6,452 bases of DNA from Microcaldota archaeon (lineage in GTDB: Archaea; Micrarchaeota; Micrarchaeia; Micrarchaeales; Micrarchaeaceae), in the NCBI GenBank assembly GCA_021828345.1, contig JAJZJI010000068.1, forward strand, positions 1-6,452. The letters are read 5' to 3'. The stretch's first letter is position 1; every line of letters starts with the position of its first letter. Positions 1 through 6,452 of this stretch are shown piece by piece. Under the pieces are notes generated by a model, which was not told where the DNA came from, made no database searches, and saw only the letters and a program-made list of their open reading frames with translations. A program made the translations under genes and the position numbers.

Positions 1-1131
1 TGTAATCTGTGAAAGGCCTGAGCCTAATGTAAACCCAGAGCCTACGCTAAAGTTTTCCATAACTGTGCCTTCTGTTGTAGTAACAGGAATGTTTTGGCCT
101 CCAACAAGTCCATTAGTTAATCCTTGAAAGTTTGATAACCCAAATCCTGTTGGAAATGTATTATATGATAATACTTCTTGTCCGTTTTTGAAGGTCTGTG
201 TGTTCGAGGTTAATGAGGTAAAGTTCTTTGGAGATATTATAATATTTCCATTTGAGTATGCAGTTGCAACGCTGCCATAATACCCATTGCCCGATACTGG
301 CACATTTGCAGATATGAAGCCTGTTTGCTGCAATGTTATTGTATTATCTACAACAGAGGGTTTATAGAGTACACTTCCTAAAAATGTGTTTTGGTTTGCA
401 ACTGTTCCATAAACATTTTGTTTAACTACATTATTAGAAGAATTAAATACTCCATTATTAATTGTTCCGATGTTAACTGGTGAATTGGCATTGATTGCCT
501 GCTGGGCCTGCTGTATCTGATTCTGATAATAATCTATTGAATTGTAGTTCTTTGCTGGGCCTGTTGTTGGGAATAATAAATTAGATATTGCATTAGAGTA
601 ATAATTATAATATGCTGGCGCTTGCCCCTGCACTGCGAGCGCATTTTGATAAGATTTTAATGTTTGCTGTGTTGAGTTTAACATCGATGTAGATGCTTGA
701 AGCTTTGCGTTTGCAGTAGCAAGTAATTGAGGATTTGCATTGTAAGATACATTAATATTATTTGATGTTGGAACTTGAATTAAACTATTATTTTTTATTG
801 CATACGTATAATTTTGAACTCCATTAAAATTGGTATTGTTTGAACTTTGCGATATTTTAGTGCTAAATGTTATATTTTTTGCAATACCTATTGGTATATA
901 TTTGCCATTTTGATTTGAATAATTAACTGTTATAACTCCATTAGGCGTATTTACATTTTGTTGTAATAGTCCTGTCGAGTTAGCGGGGTTTATTGCTGTT
1001 GCCGATGCAGTTGCTGCTGGCAGCACTCCGCCGATTGCTGGACCTGGCACAAAAGTTTGGGTTTCGTTATTGGTGTTGGCGTTGTTGCCATACCTGCTTG
1101 GGACTCCTGCTCTAACTACCGCTCGGGCCAT
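1..1131 (-). CDS. Asn/Gln/Ser/Thr-rich putative virion surface or fibre protein (3' end outside window)
   Basis: This frame is open for 377 codons from ATG at 1131 to the left edge, so the C-terminus is missing. The start is supported by a good archaeal Shine-Dalgarno, AGGTGA at 1136-1141, four bases before the ATG. The protein begins MARAVVRAGVPSRYGNN and has no signal peptide or membrane helix that I can see. The first ~60 residues are rich in Ala, Thr, Asn and Pro. A middle part (roughly residues 130-240) is rich in Gln and Ala and could form a coiled coil. The rest is Gly/Ser/Thr/Asn-rich with alternating hydrophobics, as in beta-structured fibres. I found no Cys, His or Trp, only two Asp, and Arg only in the first 13 residues. 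This composition fits an extracellular structural or adhesion protein of an archaeal virus. No family was recognised, so the role is inferred from composition and from the neighbouring coat-like gene. Confidence 0.8.
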   Translation of the reverse strand, partial: MARAVVRAGVPSRYGNNANTNNETQTFVPGPAIGGVLPAATASATAINPANSTGLLQQNVNTPNGVITVNYSNQNGKYIPIGIAKNITFSTKISQSSNNTNFNGVQNYTYAIKNNSLIQVPTSNNINVSYNANPQLLATANAKLQASTSMLNSTQQTLKSYQNALAVQGQAPAYYNYYSNAISNLLFPTTGPAKNYNSIDYYQNQIQQAQQAINANSPVNIGTINNGVFNSSNNVVKQNVYGTVANQNTFLGSVLYKPSVVDNTITLQQTGFISANVPVSGNGYYGSVATAYSNGNIIISPKNFTSLTSNTQTFKNGQEVLSYNTFPTGFGLSNFQGLTNGLVGGQNIPVTTTEGTVMENFSVGSGFTLGSGLSQIT

Positions 1132-1321: not shown

Positions 1322-1340
1322 ACGCTAGTTTTAGTAGCGC
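1322..1340 (-). terminator. Weak stem-loop at the end of the coat-like gene
   Basis: CGCTA (1323-1327) and TAGCG (1335-1339) can pair across a 7-base loop that includes the TAA stop of the coat-like gene, and a G-U pair could add one more step. On the minus strand it is followed by TTCTTT. A 5-6 bp stem is marginal. It might limit read-through or protect the 3' end of an abundant message. Confidence 0.25.
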
Positions 1341-1675
1341 TCTCCGCCGCCTCTAAAAGCGAATGCAACCAACACTATACCTATCAATATCGCTGCAACT
1401 ATTACTAATGCAATCAATGGAAGATAAGACATAATGGTATTTACACCCTTAAGTCCATATCCTGTTGCGTTATAGGCTATACTGTTTGCTGTTATAGATG
1501 AGCTAGACTGGAAATTCTGCAATATAAGTGCGCCAACGCTTCCAACAACTGCTATGAGTACAAAACCCACAACTGCTGGCAGAAGATCCGGTAGACCCAA
1601 TGCTTCTCTCCTTAGCTCTGTCTTGCTTTTAGATTCTTGTATCTGAATCGATTTCACTAAATCACTAATAGTCAT
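1331..1675 (-). CDS. Two-TM coat-like or pilin-like protein, candidate major capsid protein
   Basis: This 114-residue protein has a charged N-terminal segment (1-27), a long hydrophobic helix at about 30-52 (LPAVVGFVLIAVVGSVGALI), a short polar Ser/Asn/Gly-rich loop (53-83), a second hydrophobic helix at about 84-107, and a basic tail ending FRGGGERY. The same architecture of two helices with a short loop is known in coat proteins of spindle-shaped archaeal viruses such as SSV1 VP1, whose N-terminus is removed in the virion. The segment RREALG followed by LPDLLPAVV also resembles a class III (pilin-like) signal peptide, with possible cleavage after Gly27. The two membrane proteases encoded upstream make processing attractive. 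No Shine-Dalgarno precedes the ATG; a GTG at 1655-1657 (codon 7) is an alternative start. A pilin-like or holin-like role cannot be excluded. Confidence 0.7.
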   Translation of the reverse strand: MTISDLVKSIQIQESKSKTELRREALGLPDLLPAVVGFVLIAVVGSVGALILQNFQSSSSITANSIAYNATGYGLKGVNTIMSYLPLIALVIVAAILIGIVLVAFAFRGGGERY

Positions 1676-1719
1676 TAGGTATATAGTTTAAAAAGGAATC
1701 TGTAATTTTTGTTTTTGAA

Positions 1720-1743
1720 TTAAAAAAATAAAAAATAAGAAAG
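1720..1743 (-). terminator. T-rich terminator-like tract after the protease operon
   Basis: Read on the minus strand this stretch is almost pure T (runs of six and seven T), starting about 17 bases after the stop codon of the A24-like gene. Archaeal RNA polymerase terminates at such T-runs without needing a hairpin. It probably ends the long minus-strand operon and separates it from the coat-like gene. Confidence 0.45.
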
Positions 1744-1756
1744 ATTTAAATATTTG
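1744..1756 (-). promoter_or_regulatory. Possible TATA box for the coat-like gene (may work in either direction)
   Basis: On the minus strand, AAATATTTAAAT lies ~70-80 bases upstream of the coat-like ATG and would give a leader of about 50 bases. A second candidate (TTTTTAAAC, 1686-1694) is only ~15 bases from the ATG and would suit the GTG at 1657 better. The core TTTAAAT is nearly self-complementary. On the plus strand its context closely copies the promoter of the replication operon, so its direction is uncertain. Confidence 0.3.
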
Positions 1757-1759
1757 CGT

Positions 1760-2182
1760 TCAGATTAAAGAGATTCCTAAATTTAAAAGCAGCATCGATA
1801 TTAAAAGAAATGGCAGATAAGGGTACATTCGATCTAATCTTTTCATACCAATACCTATTGTAATTAAAAGAAATGATATTGCTATTGCTATTATAGATAT
1901 AGGGGATGCAATAATTAAAAATGTAATTAAATATATATCCGCGGAATAAAGTATTTTTTTAATATATCTTAAGGCAAATGCAAGTATTACTAAGGCTAGT
2001 ATCAATTTAAATATGTAAAGAATATTAAAATTTAATAATAAGTCTAATAATGTAAGTACTGAAAAAAATATTAGCACTGCTCTATAATGATAATCACGTA
2101 TTGATTTGTATTTGTAATCAGCGAGAGCAAGTAATGCTATAGGTATTATACATAATTGAAATATCGCTATTTCTATTACCAT
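1760..2182 (-). CDS. Prepilin peptidase-like (A24) membrane aspartyl protease, short form
   Basis: A 140-residue, very hydrophobic protein with about five or six membrane segments. The features that place it in the A24 (type IV prepilin / preflagellin peptidase) group are ALADYKYKSIRDYHY at residues 19-33, with Asp22 after the first helix; YSADIYLI at 79-86, with Asp82 at the second catalytic position; and YPYLPFLLIS at 120-129, matching the conserved Pro-Phe-x-Pro-Phe-like segment of the family. The usual GxGD is degenerate: both glycines are lost (Tyr79 and Ala81), although archaeal members are known to tolerate a hydrophobic residue before the Asp. Such enzymes cleave the short leader of class III signal peptides at the cytoplasmic face of the membrane. 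The length is near the minimal A24 core and shorter than typical archaeal FlaK/PibD (~230 residues). The start overlaps the end of the A22 gene by 7 bases. The coat-like gene downstream is a plausible substrate. Confidence 0.7.
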   Translation of the reverse strand: MVIEIAIFQLCIIPIALLALADYKYKSIRDYHYRAVLIFFSVLTLLDLLLNFNILYIFKLILALVILAFALRYIKKILYSADIYLITFLIIASPISIIAIAISFLLITIGIGMKRLDRMYPYLPFLLISMLLLNLGISLI

Positions 2183-3003
2183 AATACCGCCAATATTATA
2201 ATCATAACAAATAGTGCGCAGATAACAGGAAGTGCTGCAATAGCTTTGCCATAATAACCTGATATTTTAAAGTCGATGAAAATTCCAATTAAAGTAAGAG
2301 CAATAAATATTACAGAGATAACATAATATCCAACTATGAAAGCAGATATTATTAATGCCAGCGGAAGCAGCACATCACCCCCACCAAGCAACGATGATGT
2401 TGTTTTAATTTTTGTTTTTGTGGTTATCTTTTTAGAGATTTCTTTTATATCCCCTTGTACATAAATGAGCGGCAGTTTCAGATTTATAACTGCTGCCGCC
2501 ATTTTCTGCATCAACCCCAGACGCACTGCTATAATATCATAAATCGAAAAGATTATTAATATTATTAATAACATCAATGGACTTATAAGCAATGCTGCAT
2601 TAATCGCAAATAAGCTGATGTATACTATTGTTTTGATATTTTGACTTTTAATTTTTGATAGTTCATAATATATTACTGCTGCAATTACTATTGTAATCAA
2701 TAACGCTAATAGTGTTGTGGGATTATACAAAAATAACAGAGTACTTAACATTATTAGAAATAATGAAAACTGAACAAAATATTTATAAGTAATTGTTAAC
2801 TTTTTTAATCTCCATGCAATTAGAAAAATTCCTGTAAGTACTGCATAGAATATTAAAGATAATTCATTGCCACTGCTTACGTTCGACGCAGTGGTTGCCT
2901 GTGTTATAACATTACTATTAAATATTAGTATTAGCATCATAAGAAATAAGGATAACGTAATTGTTTCAATTACGTTAAGCATTATTCTTGTTTGGTTGTT
3001 CAT
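2176..3003 (-). CDS. Presenilin/signal-peptide-peptidase-like intramembrane aspartyl protease (A22, archaeal PSH type)
   Basis: A 275-residue polytopic membrane protein, about nine hydrophobic segments. The C-terminal half carries the three family signatures: SIYDIIAV at 153-160 with catalytic Asp156, LLGGGDVLLPLAL at 205-217 with catalytic Asp210 in a perfect GxGD, and AIAALPVI at 254-261 in place of the PAL motif (the first Pro is Ala; Ala-Leu-Pro kept). The region between the aspartates (LPLIYVQGD then a Lys/Thr-rich loop) matches the archaeal presenilin homologue layout. These enzymes cut transmembrane helices inside the bilayer. Archaeal chromosomal homologues are usually somewhat longer (about 300 residues). 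The ATG overlaps the preceding stop in TAATG with GGAG just before it, so the gene is translationally coupled. Possible targets are leader remnants of the coat-like protein or a host membrane protein; this is inferred. Confidence 0.8.
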   Translation of the reverse strand: MNNQTRIMLNVIETITLSLFLMMLILIFNSNVITQATTASNVSSGNELSLIFYAVLTGIFLIAWRLKKLTITYKYFVQFSLFLIMLSTLLFLYNPTTLLALLITIVIAAVIYYELSKIKSQNIKTIVYISLFAINAALLISPLMLLIILIIFSIYDIIAVRLGLMQKMAAAVINLKLPLIYVQGDIKEISKKITTKTKIKTTSSLLGGGDVLLPLALIISAFIVGYYVISVIFIALTLIGIFIDFKISGYYGKAIAALPVICALFVMIIILAVLW

Positions 3004-3386
3004 TACTCCACTTCGCTTATTGTGTACCTTGTACTTTCCTTTTCGCCGGTCCTGCCAACCGAGAGCAGCCGTTTCCCTGATAGCAGGAGCTTCACTAGTT
3101 CCCTCGCTGCTGCTGACTTTGAGCCGACACTAAATACTTTATTTACTCCGCCTGGGGTTTTGTCTTCGAGTTCGAAGTCGAATTTTTTAATTATCTTTCC
3201 CTCATAAGTTACCTCACGCTCGAAGGCGTTTCCTGTAAATTTAAGCAGTGCTGTTTTGCCAGGATCAATTTGGCGAAACCTGCTGTTTTGCTGCTGCTCT
3301 TTTTTCTGCTCATCGAGTTGTTTTTGGATCTGGGCTGGGGAGATTTGGACTCCAATATCTTCGTTTTCGGACATCATATCACGCAT
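3003..3386 (-). CDS. Small charged protein, possible OB-fold ssDNA-binding protein
   Basis: A 127-residue soluble protein. Residues 1-36 are acidic then Gln/Lys-rich and probably disordered or helical (SPAQIQKQLDEQKKEQQQ). From residue ~37 it looks like an alternating beta-barrel: FRQIDPGKTALLKFTGN, then VTYEGKIIKKFDFELED, then VNKVFSVGSKSAAARELVKL with one helix, then LLSVGRTGEKESTRYTISEV. This strand/helix pattern with a Gly-Lys-rich core is compatible with an OB-fold, for instance a viral single-stranded DNA-binding protein, but I recognise no family signature. There are three closely spaced in-frame starts (codons 1, 4 and 5: ATG at 3386, 3377 and 3374) and none has a clear Shine-Dalgarno, so the N-terminus could be a few residues shorter. 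The stop overlaps the next start by one base. GC content is visibly higher than in the flanking protease and zinc-protein genes. Confidence 0.7.
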   Translation of the reverse strand: MRDMMSENEDIGVQISPAQIQKQLDEQKKEQQQNSRFRQIDPGKTALLKFTGNAFEREVTYEGKIIKKFDFELEDKTPGGVNKVFSVGSKSAAARELVKLLLSGKRLLSVGRTGEKESTRYTISEVE

Positions 3387-3407: not shown

Positions 3408-3632
3408 CTAATATTGCTGCAAGGTTTCCTGCGGGTCTGTCTTAACTTCTGCCACCGGCTCTGGAGCTGGCTTGAGCTTCACCTTCAGCTTCCGCGTGGG
3501 GCGGTTGGTTAAATCTAGAATCACATCGGAAAACGATGCGTACTTCTTTTTTGAGAAATATTTTAGGTCTACGAGCCGCTTATGTACCTTTGGGCTGACG
3601 TGTATTATTCTGGTGTCTTCGTTTTGTGTCAT
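3408..3632 (-). CDS. Ribbon-helix-helix-like DNA-binding protein
   Basis: A 74-residue basic protein. RIIHVSPKVHKRLVDLKYF (residues 8-26) fits the beta-strand and first helix of a ribbon-helix-helix domain, and YASFSDVILDLTN (31-43) fits the Ser-Phe-Ser-Asp-Val turn and second helix seen in CopG and VapB-type repressors. The tail (44-74) is Pro/Lys/Glu-rich and probably unstructured. Members dimerise and insert the paired strands into the major groove. Here it is most likely a transcription regulator of the element, perhaps of its own operon or of the divergent replication operon. No toxin gene follows it in the usual tandem arrangement, so a free-standing regulator is preferred over an antitoxin. 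The gene follows the preceding stop by one base and uses a GGTAGAT sequence within the previous gene as its probable ribosome-binding site. Confidence 0.7.
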   Translation of the reverse strand: MTQNEDTRIIHVSPKVHKRLVDLKYFSKKKYASFSDVILDLTNRPTRKLKVKLKPAPEPVAEVKTDPQETLQQY

Positions 3633-4564: not shown

Positions 4565-4750
4565 ATGGCCAAGGATATAACAACTCTTTTAGGTCGACAG
4601 GTCGTTGTCGTTAAGAACGATAGATATATGAAACGTGGAACATTAAAATCGATACATCCGTCTTTTATTGTTCTCGAATTTTCAACAGGTGAACAGGAAT
4701 TAATCGGCTGGGCAGCTATAGATAACATTAAAAAAAGCGAGGTGGTTTAA
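4565..4750 (+). CDS. Small Sm/LSm-like or SH3-barrel protein
   Basis: A 61-residue protein: LLGRQVVVVKNDRYMKRGTL (8-27), SIHPSFIVLEF (29-39) and ELIGWAAIDNIKKSEV (45-60). The run of short strands, with a Gly after the second strand (RGTL), then a His-Pro turn and a final strand holding Ile-Asp-Asn-Ile, resembles the Sm1/Sm2 pattern of LSm or Hfq-type small barrels, which form rings that bind RNA. It is shorter than most archaeal Sm proteins (~75-80) and lacks the canonical N-terminal helix, so a generic SH3-like barrel is the main alternative. It has its own TATA box and a GGTG ribosome-binding site. Its stop overlaps the helicase start (TAATG), and its last codons contain the helicase Shine-Dalgarno, so the two are made together. 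A role in replication or copy control is inferred from this. Confidence 0.75.
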   Translation: MAKDITTLLGRQVVVVKNDRYMKRGTLKSIHPSFIVLEFSTGEQELIGWAAIDNIKKSEVV

Positions 4751-6452
4751 TGCAATGGGATGATTTAACCCCAGAAGAAAAGCGCGCATCTCTAAGCAGC
4801 GATACATATCTTGCAGTATTAAAAATTAAATATCCTGACGTGGATTTTAGTGTTGTTGCCTCGCTCAAAGAAAAATATAAGCTCATTGTTATCTGTAAGA
4901 ATTGTTTTAATGAGCATCTAGTTCCATTTAATAAGATTCCGCCGGTCTGCCAGGAGTGTAGTCAAGTGTCGCTCACTGTTGGTCCTAATACGATAGCACG
5001 GTGGTTTATCTCGCACTACATATTTGTTACCTCCTATGACCGGGACCAAATATTATATATGTATGACGAGACCACTGGAGTTTATAGTGAGGACTACGCT
5101 CTTGCCATGATAACGAAAGAGTGCAACATATTATACGACGATAAGATCTCTGCGCAAAAATTAAACAATACTATTCTTTCAATTAAGGCGCAGACATATC
5201 TTGAAAAGGCAAGTATGAATAGTTTGATGTTTGAGAATGAGGCCACATCTACTATATATTATAATATAGCTAATGGCGTTCTGACCTTCAATAAAAAAAC
5301 GTATGAGATTAAATTGTTGCCGCACAGCCCTAAATTTTACTTTAAGGGTATGTATAATATAGTGTTCGATGAGAATGCAGAAGCTCCGGAGAAGTTTTTG
5401 GATTTTATCGGTGAGATTGCATCGACGGAGGAAAACTTTATTAATTTGATTGAGGCCTTTGCCTTTCCGATGCTGCCCAACTACCCAATCCAGCGCAGCG
5501 TTGCGCTGGTCGGGGCTGGAAAGAATGGGAAGTCCACATATCTTAAAGCCCTCGAAATTTTTTATGGTGAGAGATATATATCGCATTTAACATTGCAGCA
5601 GCTATCATCAGCGATTACGGGCCAGCCCTTCGCGCTGATCCAATTAACTAACAAGATAGCAAATGTTGCTGACGATCTACCCTCAAAGCCGGTTGACTCT
5701 GTTGGGTACTTTAAGCAGCTCACCGGCGGCAGCAGCGTCGAGGCAGAGCGGAAGTTCGGCTCGAGGGTTGCGTTTACCAACAGCGCGAAGTTCTACTTTG
5801 CGGCGAACAGCATGCCTGCTGTAAGTGAGGACACTATTGCATTTTACCGTCGATTTTTATTCATTGAATTTGATAATATAATAAAGAAAACAAGGGATCA
5901 AAAAGAGATGCTTGAGGATATAATTAGCAGTAGCGAGCGATCTGGGGTATTAAATATGTTATTGTTGTATGTGCTGCCTCGCCTCATTGCCCAGAATGAG
6001 TTTACAAGGGCCAAGTCGGTTGAGTTTGTGCAACAACAATACAATAAATATAGCAATACTGCGAAGGTTTTTTTTGAAGAAATTTGCTGCTATAATTCTA
6101 ACTCCCAAATACTAAAATCGGAGCTAAAAAATACCTATAAAAAGTACTGCGAAATTAACAAATATATCATGGTTTCTGACAAAATGTTTTTTAGGACATT
6201 AAATGAGATTTTCCCTACCATTTTTGAGGAGCGTGTCGTCATAAATAACCTAAGACATAGGGTCATAAAAGGGCTTAATGTGGAGTTCCATAATTATGGA
6301 ACGGAAAATAAGCAAAATGCGGAAGCGCAAGAAAAGGACATAATTAAAAATTATTTTATACATAATGCTGAAAATTCCAAAATTATGGAAGATTCTAACA
6401 ATATATTAGAAAAAGAGGTTAAAAATGGTCAACATGGTCAACATGGTCAACA
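4750..6452 (+). CDS. Zinc-finger plus D5-type superfamily 3 helicase, replication protein (3' end outside window)
   Basis: The frame is open for 567 codons from ATG at 4750 to the right edge. GAGGTGG (4739-4745), four bases before the ATG, is a strong Shine-Dalgarno. Residues 49-70 hold Cys49-x2-Cys52 and Cys67-x2-Cys70, a zinc ribbon. About 80-245 matches a D5_N-like helical region. The SF3 core follows: Walker A GAGKNGKST (255-263), Walker B KIANVADDL (302-310, Asp308/Asp309), motif C FYFAANSMP (348-356) and the arginine-finger segment FYRRF (365-369). Residues ~440-510 could be a winged helix, and the visible end is a polar linker with Gly-Gln-His repeats. This family forms hexameric rings that unwind DNA at viral and plasmid origins. 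Unlike many P4/pRN1-type proteins, the visible N-terminus has no archaeo-eukaryotic primase domain; a primase might lie downstream or come from the host. The central part is richer in GC than the C-terminal part. Confidence 0.92.
   Translation, partial: MQWDDLTPEEKRASLSSDTYLAVLKIKYPDVDFSVVASLKEKYKLIVICKNCFNEHLVPFNKIPPVCQECSQVSLTVGPNTIARWFISHYIFVTSYDRDQILYMYDETTGVYSEDYALAMITKECNILYDDKISAQKLNNTILSIKAQTYLEKASMNSLMFENEATSTIYYNIANGVLTFNKKTYEIKLLPHSPKFYFKGMYNIVFDENAEAPEKFLDFIGEIASTEENFINLIEAFAFPMLPNYPIQRSVALVGAGKNGKSTYLKALEIFYGERYISHLTLQQLSSAITGQPFALIQLTNKIANVADDLPSKPVDSVGYFKQLTGGSSVEAERKFGSRVAFTNSAKFYFAANSMPAVSEDTIAFYRRFLFIEFDNIIKKTRDQKEMLEDIISSSERSGVLNMLLLYVLPRLIAQNEFTRAKSVEFVQQQYNKYSNTAKVFFEEICCYNSNSQILKSELKNTYKKYCEINKYIMVSDKMFFRTLNEIFPTIFEERVVINNLRHRVIKGLNVEFHNYGTENKQNAEAQEKDIIKNYFIHNAENSKIMEDSNNILEKEVKNGQHGQHGQ
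6425..6452 (+). repeat. 9-bp tandem repeat at the end of the visible helicase gene
   Basis: The unit ATGGTCAAC is repeated perfectly three times (6425-6433, 6434-6442, 6443-6451), and the array runs into the window edge. In frame it encodes Gly-Gln-His repeats. The unit length keeps the frame, so it could be a low-complexity protein linker, an iteron-like binding site for the replication protein, or a slippage array. Confidence 0.8.

What the first reader, a model, noticed from the sequence alone, without database searches (positions are those of the whole stretch)
1331..3003. Two different GxGD membrane proteases encoded next to a coat/pilin-like protein
The presenilin-type A22 gene (2176-3003) and the A24 prepilin-peptidase-like gene (1760-2182) overlap by 7 bases, and the next gene on the same strand is a two-helix coat-like protein with a charged pro-region. 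Both protease families act on or within the membrane. Inference: a virus-encoded maturation module in which A24 trims the coat leader and A22 clears leader fragments or cuts a host membrane protein. I know of no described archaeal virus using such a pair, but could not search.
Basis: partly seen in the sequence, partly recalled or inferred. Interest (0 to 1): 0.85.

Follow-up and report, generated by a model that had tools for sequence, protein, structure and literature searches.

The report
Archaeal virus with two membrane proteases
A small virus-like genome linked to tiny Micrarchaeota archaea carries a presenilin-family protease and a short pilin-leader-peptidase-like gene right next to its coat-protein gene, which suggests that some spindle-type archaeal viruses may bring their own enzyme to trim their coat, a step whose enzyme was unknown in the best-studied relative.

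Summary
The three genes are real and in the stated order. A22 is sound: beyond two close homologues its relatives are PF06550 proteins (best E 3.5e-6), with YD and GGGD aligned. The A24 call is weaker: no profile hit at cut-off, no GxGD glycines (YSAD), mixed HMM controls; but both aspartates, a DxKxKxI motif, spacing and topology fit, and a profile-profile score exceeds 400 of 400 shuffles. The coat family keeps Ala/Gly, four residues, then Asp/Glu just before its first membrane helix in 62 of 62 distinct sequences, like a pilin-type leader-peptidase site. Relatives point to A24 rather than A22: contig L002 has a topologically matching small membrane protein directly upstream of two coat copies, and L100/L101 have coat relatives 1.5-2 kb from a 139-aa A24-type protein (PF01478 E 1.5e-4 and 0.31). 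A22 was found at none of seven other coat loci in the DNA held. Best reading: a viral A24-like leader peptidase matures a spindle-type coat; A22 is a lineage-specific extra that cuts another membrane protein. 'A22 clears leader fragments' fits poorly, since such leaders are short and hydrophilic. Function is inferred throughout.

The parts
2176..3003 (-). A22 (presenilin / signal-peptide-peptidase-like, PF06550-type) intramembrane aspartyl protease, 275 aa; Y155-D156, G207-G-G-D210, A-A-L-P at 256-259
   Evidence: phmmer; NCBIfam IMP_arch_presen for homologue P0002, under cut-off; motif positions
1760..2182 (-). A24-like (prepilin-peptidase-like) small membrane protein, 140 aa; D22 (DYKYKSIRD) after the first hydrophobic stretch, D82 (YSAD) before the fourth
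   Evidence: curated profile cut-off not reached
1331..1675 (-). two-helix coat-like protein, 114 aa, with leader; predicted cut after A25 (A25 / D30 = -1 / +5)
1601..1675 (-). predicted leader peptide of the coat (residues 1-25)
   Evidence: inference from conservation
2176..2182 (-). 7-base overlap of the A22 stop and A24-like start (ATGGTAA)
3003..3386 (-). upstream 127-aa gene, overlaps the A22 start by one base (TAATG); probably same operon, function not identified
1..1131 (-). large Asn-rich protein running off the window; L002 also has a large protein downstream of coat (same place; homology not tested)
4750..6450 (+). primase-helicase (DUF5906/D5_N), runs off the window; marks the element as virus or plasmid
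   Evidence: 91% DNA match in Micrarchaeota-phylum genome G277

Best explanation
The window is part of a virus-like genome of Micrarchaeota that makes a spindle-virus-type coat as a precursor. The A24-like enzyme works as the virus's own leader peptidase: it cuts the coat after A25, on the cytoplasmic side next to the first membrane helix, as prepilin peptidases do, so that the mature coat starts at its hydrophobic hairpin and can assemble at the membrane. The A22 protease is probably co-translated with it but is an extra of this lineage; it most likely cuts the membrane helix of another protein (a host surface protein, or surplus or misassembled membrane proteins), not the coat leader. Shown: gene order, gene overlaps, A22 homology, conservation of the site, recurrence of A24-type or A24-like genes near coat relatives. 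Inferred: any cleavage, the substrate of each enzyme, virion shape, the host.
For: A22. A24-like: both Asp in register without forcing in the three HMM runs; profile-profile score 24.24 over 88 columns (E 0.0016, probability 16%), 0 of 400 column shuffles as high by score, 1 of 400 as low by E-value; two-part motif in 3 of 3 homologues, in 1, 0 and 1 of 20,000 shuffles of each, and among 105 membrane ORFs of fetched loci 17 hits, all in loci fetched by PF01478. Coat site: 62 of 62 A/G and 62 of 62 D/E. Recurrence: L002 gene order and topology; L100 A24-type protein PF01478 E 1.5e-4 with two coat relatives in the same region. Open question: SSV1 VP1 is cut by 'an unknown protease' and no SSV1 ORF has clear similarity to proteases (PMC5748691, passages).
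Against: The A24-like protein misses every curated cut-off. With the 31-domain model 101 of 2000 shuffles and 5 of 72 non-A24 membrane proteins score as high as the window; homologue P0087 scores like shuffles (501 of 1000; 1494 of 2000); with default filters the A24 profile finds nothing at E 0.05 in 12 sources, the window and L100 included; hhalign against 10 Micrarchaeota A24 domains gave 0.1%. GxGD glycines are missing. Only 9 of 25 reference A24 domains carry the two-part motif, which I wrote after seeing the sequences. Lys/Arg at -2 of the coat site is in 9 of 62 sequences, not in the window. The L002 protein is A24-like by topology and place only. Asp spacing in L100/L101 is 52, outside the 56-65 of 22 of 25 references. 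Micrarchaeota have a PF01478 enzyme of their own (56 of 60 genomes at E 0.001, 50 over cut-off), which could do the cut.
Confidence: 0.45

Rival explanations
1. One reading: A24 trims the coat leader and A22 then clears the leader fragment.
For: Overlap of A22 and A24-like genes; homologues of both at similar divergence exist (P0002 48%, P0087 53%), though on contigs of different length and source.
Against: The predicted leader is 25 residues, charged, without a hydrophobic stretch; the archaeal presenilin cuts within transmembrane regions (PMC2947513, passages). A22 not found at seven other coat loci in the DNA held.
Confidence: 0.07
2. The host's own leader peptidase matures the coat; the viral A24-like protein is inactive or serves another purpose (for example an assembly chaperone).
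For: PF01478 in 56 of 60 Micrarchaeota-phylum genomes; GxGD glycines lost in the viral protein; curated cut-offs missed.
Against: D22, D30 and D82 are the only Asp kept in all three homologues; an A24-type protein recurs near coat relatives in other genomes.
Confidence: 0.22
3. The A24-like and A22 proteins act on host pilins or other surface proteins, for instance to remove a receptor after infection, and not on the coat.
For: In Sulfolobus islandicus, loss of pilins gives resistance to spindle-shaped viruses, although pilin or PibD mutants still adsorb SSV9 (PMC7217056, abstract passage). A22 enzymes cut transmembrane helices.
Against: No test here; the coat itself has a leader-peptidase-type site.
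Confidence: 0.12
4. The small protein is not an aspartyl protease at all but an unrelated membrane protein (holin-like or chaperone), and the motif is chance.
For: No profile match at cut-off; AlphaFold model useless (pLDDT 45.6); hhalign with 10 Micrarchaeota A24 domains 0.1%; control results.
Against: Controls; positional recurrence in L002, L100, L101.
Confidence: 0.22
5. The coat-like protein is a pilin-like surface or holin protein rather than a capsid protein (not exclusive of the others).
For: Pilin-type N-terminus; relatives in host-like flanks in L001, L003, L102, L103; Foldseek and VIA list no capsid protein (inconclusive).
Against: A spindle-virus capsid protein is the best, though marginal, PDB match (E 0.014 to 0.086); tandem copies differing mainly in the loop in L002, L100, L101; primase-helicase in the window.
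Confidence: 0.2

Closest known systems
PSH / archaeal presenilin homologue (PF06550, NCBIfam NF041679; structures 4hyc, 4hyd, 4hyg; MCMJR1 of PMC2947513, the equation of the two names being recalled)
   Same: YD and GxGD motifs, similar length; the 17-row alignment profile, mostly PF06550 proteins, finds 4hyc at E 5e-27
   Different: virus-borne, overlapping an A24-like gene next to a coat gene; AALP instead of PALP; P0002 reaches 36.6 bits against an NCBIfam cut-off of 125, the window protein none
Archaeal prepilin / preflagellin peptidases (A24, PF01478)
   Same: D-x-[KR]-x-[KR]-x-[IV] after the first hydrophobic stretch, second Asp before the fourth, spacing 60 (references: 22 of 25 at 56-65, three at 83-84)
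   Different: 140 aa only, YSAD in place of GGAD/GxGD, below curated cut-offs
Spindle-shaped virus major capsid proteins (SMV1 7RO2; SSV1 VP1)
   Same: two hydrophobic helices joined by a turn (PMC10848311, passages); precursor with N-terminal leader in SSV1 VP1 (PMC5748691, passages)
   Different: leader carries an A/G-x4-D/E site next to helix 1; sequence match only marginal
Mobile elements with prepilin peptidases: thaumarchaeal integrative-conjugative elements (PMC6563490, passages)
   Same: a mobile element carrying a prepilin peptidase and pilins
   Different: there as part of a conjugation apparatus, with FlaI/PilT and VirB homologues; not a virus coat module

Membership tests
A22 presenilin/SPP family (PF06550) | YD and GxGD catalytic motifs | tested here: met
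   Y155, D156, G207, G209, D210 invariant in 17 aligned sequences
A22 presenilin/SPP family (PF06550) | sequence homology beyond chance | tested here: met
   24 of 26 phmmer hits at E up to 10 carry PF06550, best 3.5e-6; the other two are close homologues (only the 7992 candidates sharing most words were scored). The window protein itself misses the Pfam model
A22 presenilin/SPP family (PF06550) | PAL motif in the last helix | tested here: inconclusive
   A-A-L-P at 256-259; PF06550 protein P0004 also has AALP
A22 presenilin/SPP family (PF06550) | nine membrane helices | tested here: inconclusive
   seven clear hydrophobic stretches by a simple 19-residue window
A22 presenilin/SPP family (PF06550) | intramembrane proteolysis | not testable with these tools
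   needs an enzyme assay
A24 type IV leader peptidase (PF01478) | profile score over curated cut-off | tested here: not met
   no hit for window or P0087; P0086 8.2 bits, E 4.7, against 26.5
A24 type IV leader peptidase (PF01478) | two conserved Asp after TM1 and before TM4 | tested here: met
   D22 and D82 in 3 of 3 homologues; topology
A24 type IV leader peptidase (PF01478) | glycines of GxGD/GGAD | tested here: not met
   YSAD in window and P0087, YAAD in P0086; hence 'A24-like', not filed as a member
A24 type IV leader peptidase (PF01478) | distant homology by profile comparison | tested here: inconclusive
   hhalign E 0.0016, 0 of 400 shuffles as high by score; HMM runs mixed; hhalign 0.1% with a smaller set
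Class III signal / type IV pilin (rule recalled) | Gly/Ala at -1 and Glu/Asp at +5 before a hydrophobic helix | tested here: met
   62 of 62 and 62 of 62 distinct sequences
Class III signal / type IV pilin (rule recalled) | Lys/Arg at -2 | tested here: not met
   9 of 62; window has E24; so not filed as a pilin
Spindle-shaped virus MCP | two hydrophobic helices in a hairpin | tested here: met
   H28-57 and H66-108 in a model of pLDDT 76
Spindle-shaped virus MCP | sequence or fold match to a solved MCP | tested here: inconclusive
   7ro2 best of PDB, E 0.086, 0.027, 0.014; an entry labelled sc-CC-6-95 scores E 0.085 in the last run; Foldseek/VIA list no MCP
Spindle-shaped virus MCP | main protein of spindle virions | not testable with these tools
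   needs virions

The most novel reading that the evidence does not exclude
A spindle-type virus of Micrarchaeota carries a membrane-protease cassette of its own: a type IV leader peptidase that turns a pilin-like precursor into coat, and, co-translated with it, the first virus-encoded presenilin-family protease seen in such a virus, cutting helices within the membrane during assembly, exit or take-over of the host surface.
Probability: 0.32. Interest if true: 0.88.

Novelty: new variant of a known kind. Interest (0 to 1): 0.7.

Why it matters
The enzyme that trims the SSV1 coat precursor is reported as unknown (PMC5748691, passages), and the natural substrates of an archaeal presenilin homologue were reported as unknown in 2010 (PMC2947513, passages). 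A virus operon that puts a leader-peptidase-like gene and a presenilin-family gene beside a coat with a pilin-type site makes both questions testable with three small genes. It would also tie spindle-virus coats to type IV pilins in how they mature. No archaeal virus with a presenilin turned up in the searches made here: (no paper holding both 'archaeal virus' and 'presenilin'; listing only), PHROGs (one weak match to a 34-residue family), one IMG/VR pattern scan and tblastn of two proteins against 50,697 phage records.

Tried and rejected
AlphaFold of the A24-like protein with 3 sequences was useless (pLDDT 45.6), so no fold search was run on it. Fold searches of the coat model listed only generic or unrelated helical matches; the absence of a capsid protein there shows nothing. 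IMG/VR pattern scans with A22, coat (three ways), helicase, P0002, an A22 family alignment and the A24-like alignment confirmed no relative (all 8 allowed). tblastn against the phage records of a PF06550 protein (P0018) and of P0002 at E 0.1: none; of the window coat at E 1: none; of L101's coat, A24-type and a 208-aa protein: none. Window A24-like protein against the L002 protein: not significant. Capture of A22 from the Micrarchaeota host: not supported; 13 host A22 proteins group apart from the viral pair (100/99), on long branches. Host A22 next to a pilin gene: 1 of 13 loci by a regular expression, dropped. The A24-like gene in 301 Micrarchaeota-phylum genomes: 19 with matches at E up to 0.1, the best a 40-residue stretch, E 0.004. 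Left part of the virus in G277: not found; coat search E 0.08 with stops inside, A22 search nothing.

Rows dropped before counts: one duplicate among 63 coats (one of the 62, from L003, is cut off by a contig end). For the HMM, three of 28 auto-picked domains (L037, L042, L061) were dropped as mis-picked; still held them. The 29 'membrane controls' held four A24 proteins missed by the picker (60-80 bits; judged by eye from their GGAD motifs), leaving 25 (best 1.6 bits, none as high as the window's 5.3), four of 76 controls were likewise A24 proteins (45-100 bits), leaving 72, of which five score at or above the window's 2.5 (6.5, 5.5, 4.1, 2.9, 2.7; recounted). The motif was written after seeing the sequences, so its shuffle counts are not a clean test. 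L100-L103 were left out of the 62-of-62 count because the alignment sets their G-x4-D/E one column off or opens a gap.

Full report
1. What is in the window. ORFs at the stated places exist. On the minus strand run, in order of transcription, several small genes, a 127-aa gene (3003-3386), A22 (2176-3003), the A24-like gene (1760-2182), coat (1331-1675), a 58-aa ORF (1116-1292) and a large Asn-rich protein that leaves the window (1-1131). On the plus strand lie a 61-aa protein (4565-4750) and a primase-helicase (4750-6450; PF19263 DUF5906 E 5e-16, D5_N 3e-5; PHROG 'DNA primase' E 7e-59). No tRNA and no Rfam match at gathering score. The A22 start overlaps the stop of the gene before it by one base (TAATG) and the A22 stop overlaps the A24-like start by seven (ATGGTAA); 84 bases separate the A24-like gene and coat.

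2. Host. A genome scan with the coat alignment found three loci: two MAGs labelled Candidatus Micrarchaeota (L001, L003) and one labelled Methanoregulaceae, isolate SPRUCE (L002; a peatland project, recalled). Among 301 genomes of the Micrarchaeota phylum the window DNA has one long match, 91% over window 4565-6452 in G277 (L080, a 4.6 kb contig), and one to the coat gene, 69% over 227 bases in G001; the other matches in the capped list are under 80 bases. The coat profile matched 5 of 295 such genomes: G001 and G003 clearly, G057, G116 and G007 weakly and mostly over part. So it is not a housekeeping gene. Micrarchaeota are the likely hosts; this is inference from binning and similarity.

3. 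A22. The window protein matches no Pfam or NCBIfam model by itself. A search of 5.8 billion proteins (the 7992 candidates sharing most words were scored) gave 26 hits at E up to 10: P0001 (99%), P0002 (47%), and 24 proteins that all carry PF06550, the best at E 3.5e-6. In a 17-sequence alignment Y155, D156, G207, G209 and D210 are invariant. P0002 matches the NCBIfam model for archaeal presenilin PSH at E 3.5e-9, under its cut-off. The profile of that alignment, which is mostly PF06550 proteins, finds the PSH structure 4hyc at E 5e-27. The last motif is AALP instead of PALP; P0004, a PF06550 protein, shares this. A tree puts the two viral proteins on a long stem outside the 13 Micrarchaeota host proteins; long branches make the place unsure. 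59 of 60 Micrarchaeota-phylum genomes carry an A22 gene of their own.

4. The A24-like protein. A search found only itself, P0086 (89%) and P0087 (53%). D22, D30 and D82 are the only Asp kept in all three. P0086 aligns over almost the whole of PF01478 (4-101 of 104) at an insignificant E 4.7; P0087 does not. I built profiles from A24 domains of genomes searched with PF01478. In the three HMM runs the window protein aligned with D22 on the first and D82 on the second catalytic Asp. Scores were mixed. With 28 domains, 0 of 500 hydropathy-keeping shuffles score as high as the window (P0086 2, P0087 112). With 25 domains, 6 of 1000 (P0086 5, P0087 501), and 0 of 25 other membrane proteins. With 31 domains, 101 of 2000 (P0086 27, P0087 1494), and 5 of 72 other membrane proteins. 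A24 proteins not used in the profiles score 45-100 bits, the window 2.5-5.3. With default filters the 31-domain profile finds nothing at E 0.05 in 12 sources, the window and L100 included. Profile against profile gives hhalign E 0.0016, probability 16%, over 88 columns; 0 of 400 column shuffles score as high and 1 of 400 has as low an E-value; the A22 alignment gives E 0.02 and the coat alignments 0.23-0.24. An earlier run against 10 Micrarchaeota domains gave E 0.44 and 0.1% probability. A two-part motif (DxKxKxI-type, then small-small-Asp some 40-60 residues on) is present in all three homologues, in 1, 0 and 1 of 20,000 shuffles of each, in 9 of 25 reference A24 domains, and in 17 of 105 membrane ORFs of fetched loci, all 17 in PF01478 loci. 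Topology agrees: D22 follows the first hydrophobic stretch, D82 precedes the fourth. The missing glycines (YSAD) and missed cut-offs keep me from filing it as A24; it is A24-like.

5. The coat. The search gave 58 proteins, the window's own included. The model is a leader plus a helical hairpin. In an alignment of 62 distinct sequences, position 25 is Ala (56) or Gly (6) and position 30 is Asp (53) or Glu (9) in every one; leaders are 3-41 residues long with net positive charge in all rows. This is the -1/+5 signature of class III signal peptides (the rule is recalled, not from a call). Against it, Lys/Arg at -2 holds in 9 of 62. Some divergent members read KG|LNLQE (P0084), RG|YNIGD (L002 second copy) and RG|AGLND (P0081). 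In L100-L103 a G-x4-D/E spacing can be read, but the alignment sets it one column off or opens a gap, so they are not counted. The best PDB match of the coat profile is 7ro2 at E 0.086, 0.027 and 0.014 with three alignments, the capsid protein of SMV1 (PMC10866085, passages); another entry (8qag, sc-CC-6-95) at E 0.085 in the last run shows that this is marginal.

6. Relatives. L002 holds, on one strand, a membrane protein (ORF 383-901, 145 aa from an internal ATG at 464), coat copy 1 (951-1256), coat copy 2 (1317-1700), a small ORF and a large protein: the window's order by position, without A22. That 145-aa protein has five hydrophobic stretches with an Asp after the first and before the fourth, as in the window, but no significant sequence match. 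In 392 genomes of the phylum of G002, four have coat matches, G002 itself included. Two others (G416 in L100, G590 in L101) carry two coat relatives each and, 1.5 and 2.0 kb away on the other strand, a 139-aa A24-type protein: PF01478 E 1.5e-4 in L100 (22.6 bits against a cut-off of 26.5) and 0.31 in L101, 63% identical to each other, with Asp at 23 (QDLRSRLIS, QDLDDRLIS) and 75 (RGDV, TGDV), a spacing of 52. Three L101 proteins (coat, A24-type, a 208-aa protein) match no phage record. G683 has two coat relatives near contig ends in flanks that look host-like by eye. A profile search of 12 sources finds A22 in the window and in the Micrarchaeota host locus L004 only, while coat is found in the window and, in full or cut by a contig end, in L001, L002, L003, L100, L101, L102 and L103, and as weaker matches in L010 and L011. 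Flanks are short in L002, and L001, L003, L102 and L103 show host-like genes, so A22's absence is shown only for the DNA held; no A24-like ORF was noticed in those four either (whose start-codon choice also missed the L100 and L101 proteins).

7. Mechanism. Leader peptidases of the A24 kind cut outside the membrane, while the archaeal presenilin cuts within transmembrane regions (PMC2947513, passages). The coat's site lies before its first helix, so it suits A24 and not A22. The leader that is released has no membrane helix, so A22 is not needed to clear it. I therefore take the A24-like protein as the coat's leader peptidase (0.45) and A22 as an intramembrane protease for another target, perhaps a host surface protein; that target is a guess. 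Host pilins are one candidate: their loss makes Sulfolobus islandicus resistant to spindle-shaped viruses (PMC7217056, abstract passage).

8. Known or new. SSV1 VP1 is a precursor cut by an unknown protease, and its N-terminal part is essential (PMC5748691, passages). Spindle-virus capsid proteins have two hydrophobic helices joined by a short turn (PMC10848311, passages). Mobile elements with prepilin peptidases and pilins are known as thaumarchaeal conjugative elements (PMC6563490, passages). Paper searches joining archaeal or spindle-shaped viruses with prepilin peptidase, class III signal peptide or presenilin listed nothing that I recognised as describing this (listings, with passages seen only of the papers cited here and of PMC12714723). 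The library lacks most subscription papers. I rate it a new variant of a known kind: a spindle-type virus, with proteases that I did not find described for such viruses.

Noticed in passing
L080:2401-2697 (+), contig of Micrarchaeota-phylum genome G277: Just right of the helicase that matches the window at 91%, a 98-aa ORF with signal-peptidase S26-like motifs by eye (GDSMLPTL, GDIV, HRI, KGDN); PF10502 E 0.025, under cut-off. If the window's virus has it too, it would be a third protease gene.
   Followed up: partly
L001:6741-7070; L003:9986-10183; L102:4810-5160; L103:474-824: Coat-like genes close to contig ends next to host-like genes in four cases, one near a tRNA-Gly gene; perhaps repeated or integrated copies that break assemblies.
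   Followed up: no
   Followed up: partly
L004:573-2460: In Micrarchaeota genome G003 the cellular A22 gene is directly followed by a class III pilin-like gene; 1 of 13 host A22 loci looked at.
   Followed up: partly
window 3408-3632 and 4565-4750: Small proteins with weak, below-cut-off matches to VAPB_antitox (PF02697, E 0.0024) and DUF2642 (PF10842, E 0.0007).
   Followed up: no
L010 (G057) and L011 (G116): Other mobile-element-like regions in Micrarchaeota-phylum genomes with coat-like matches (E 2.5e-9 and 1.1e-4); L010 has a Zot-like ATPase by eye.
   Followed up: no
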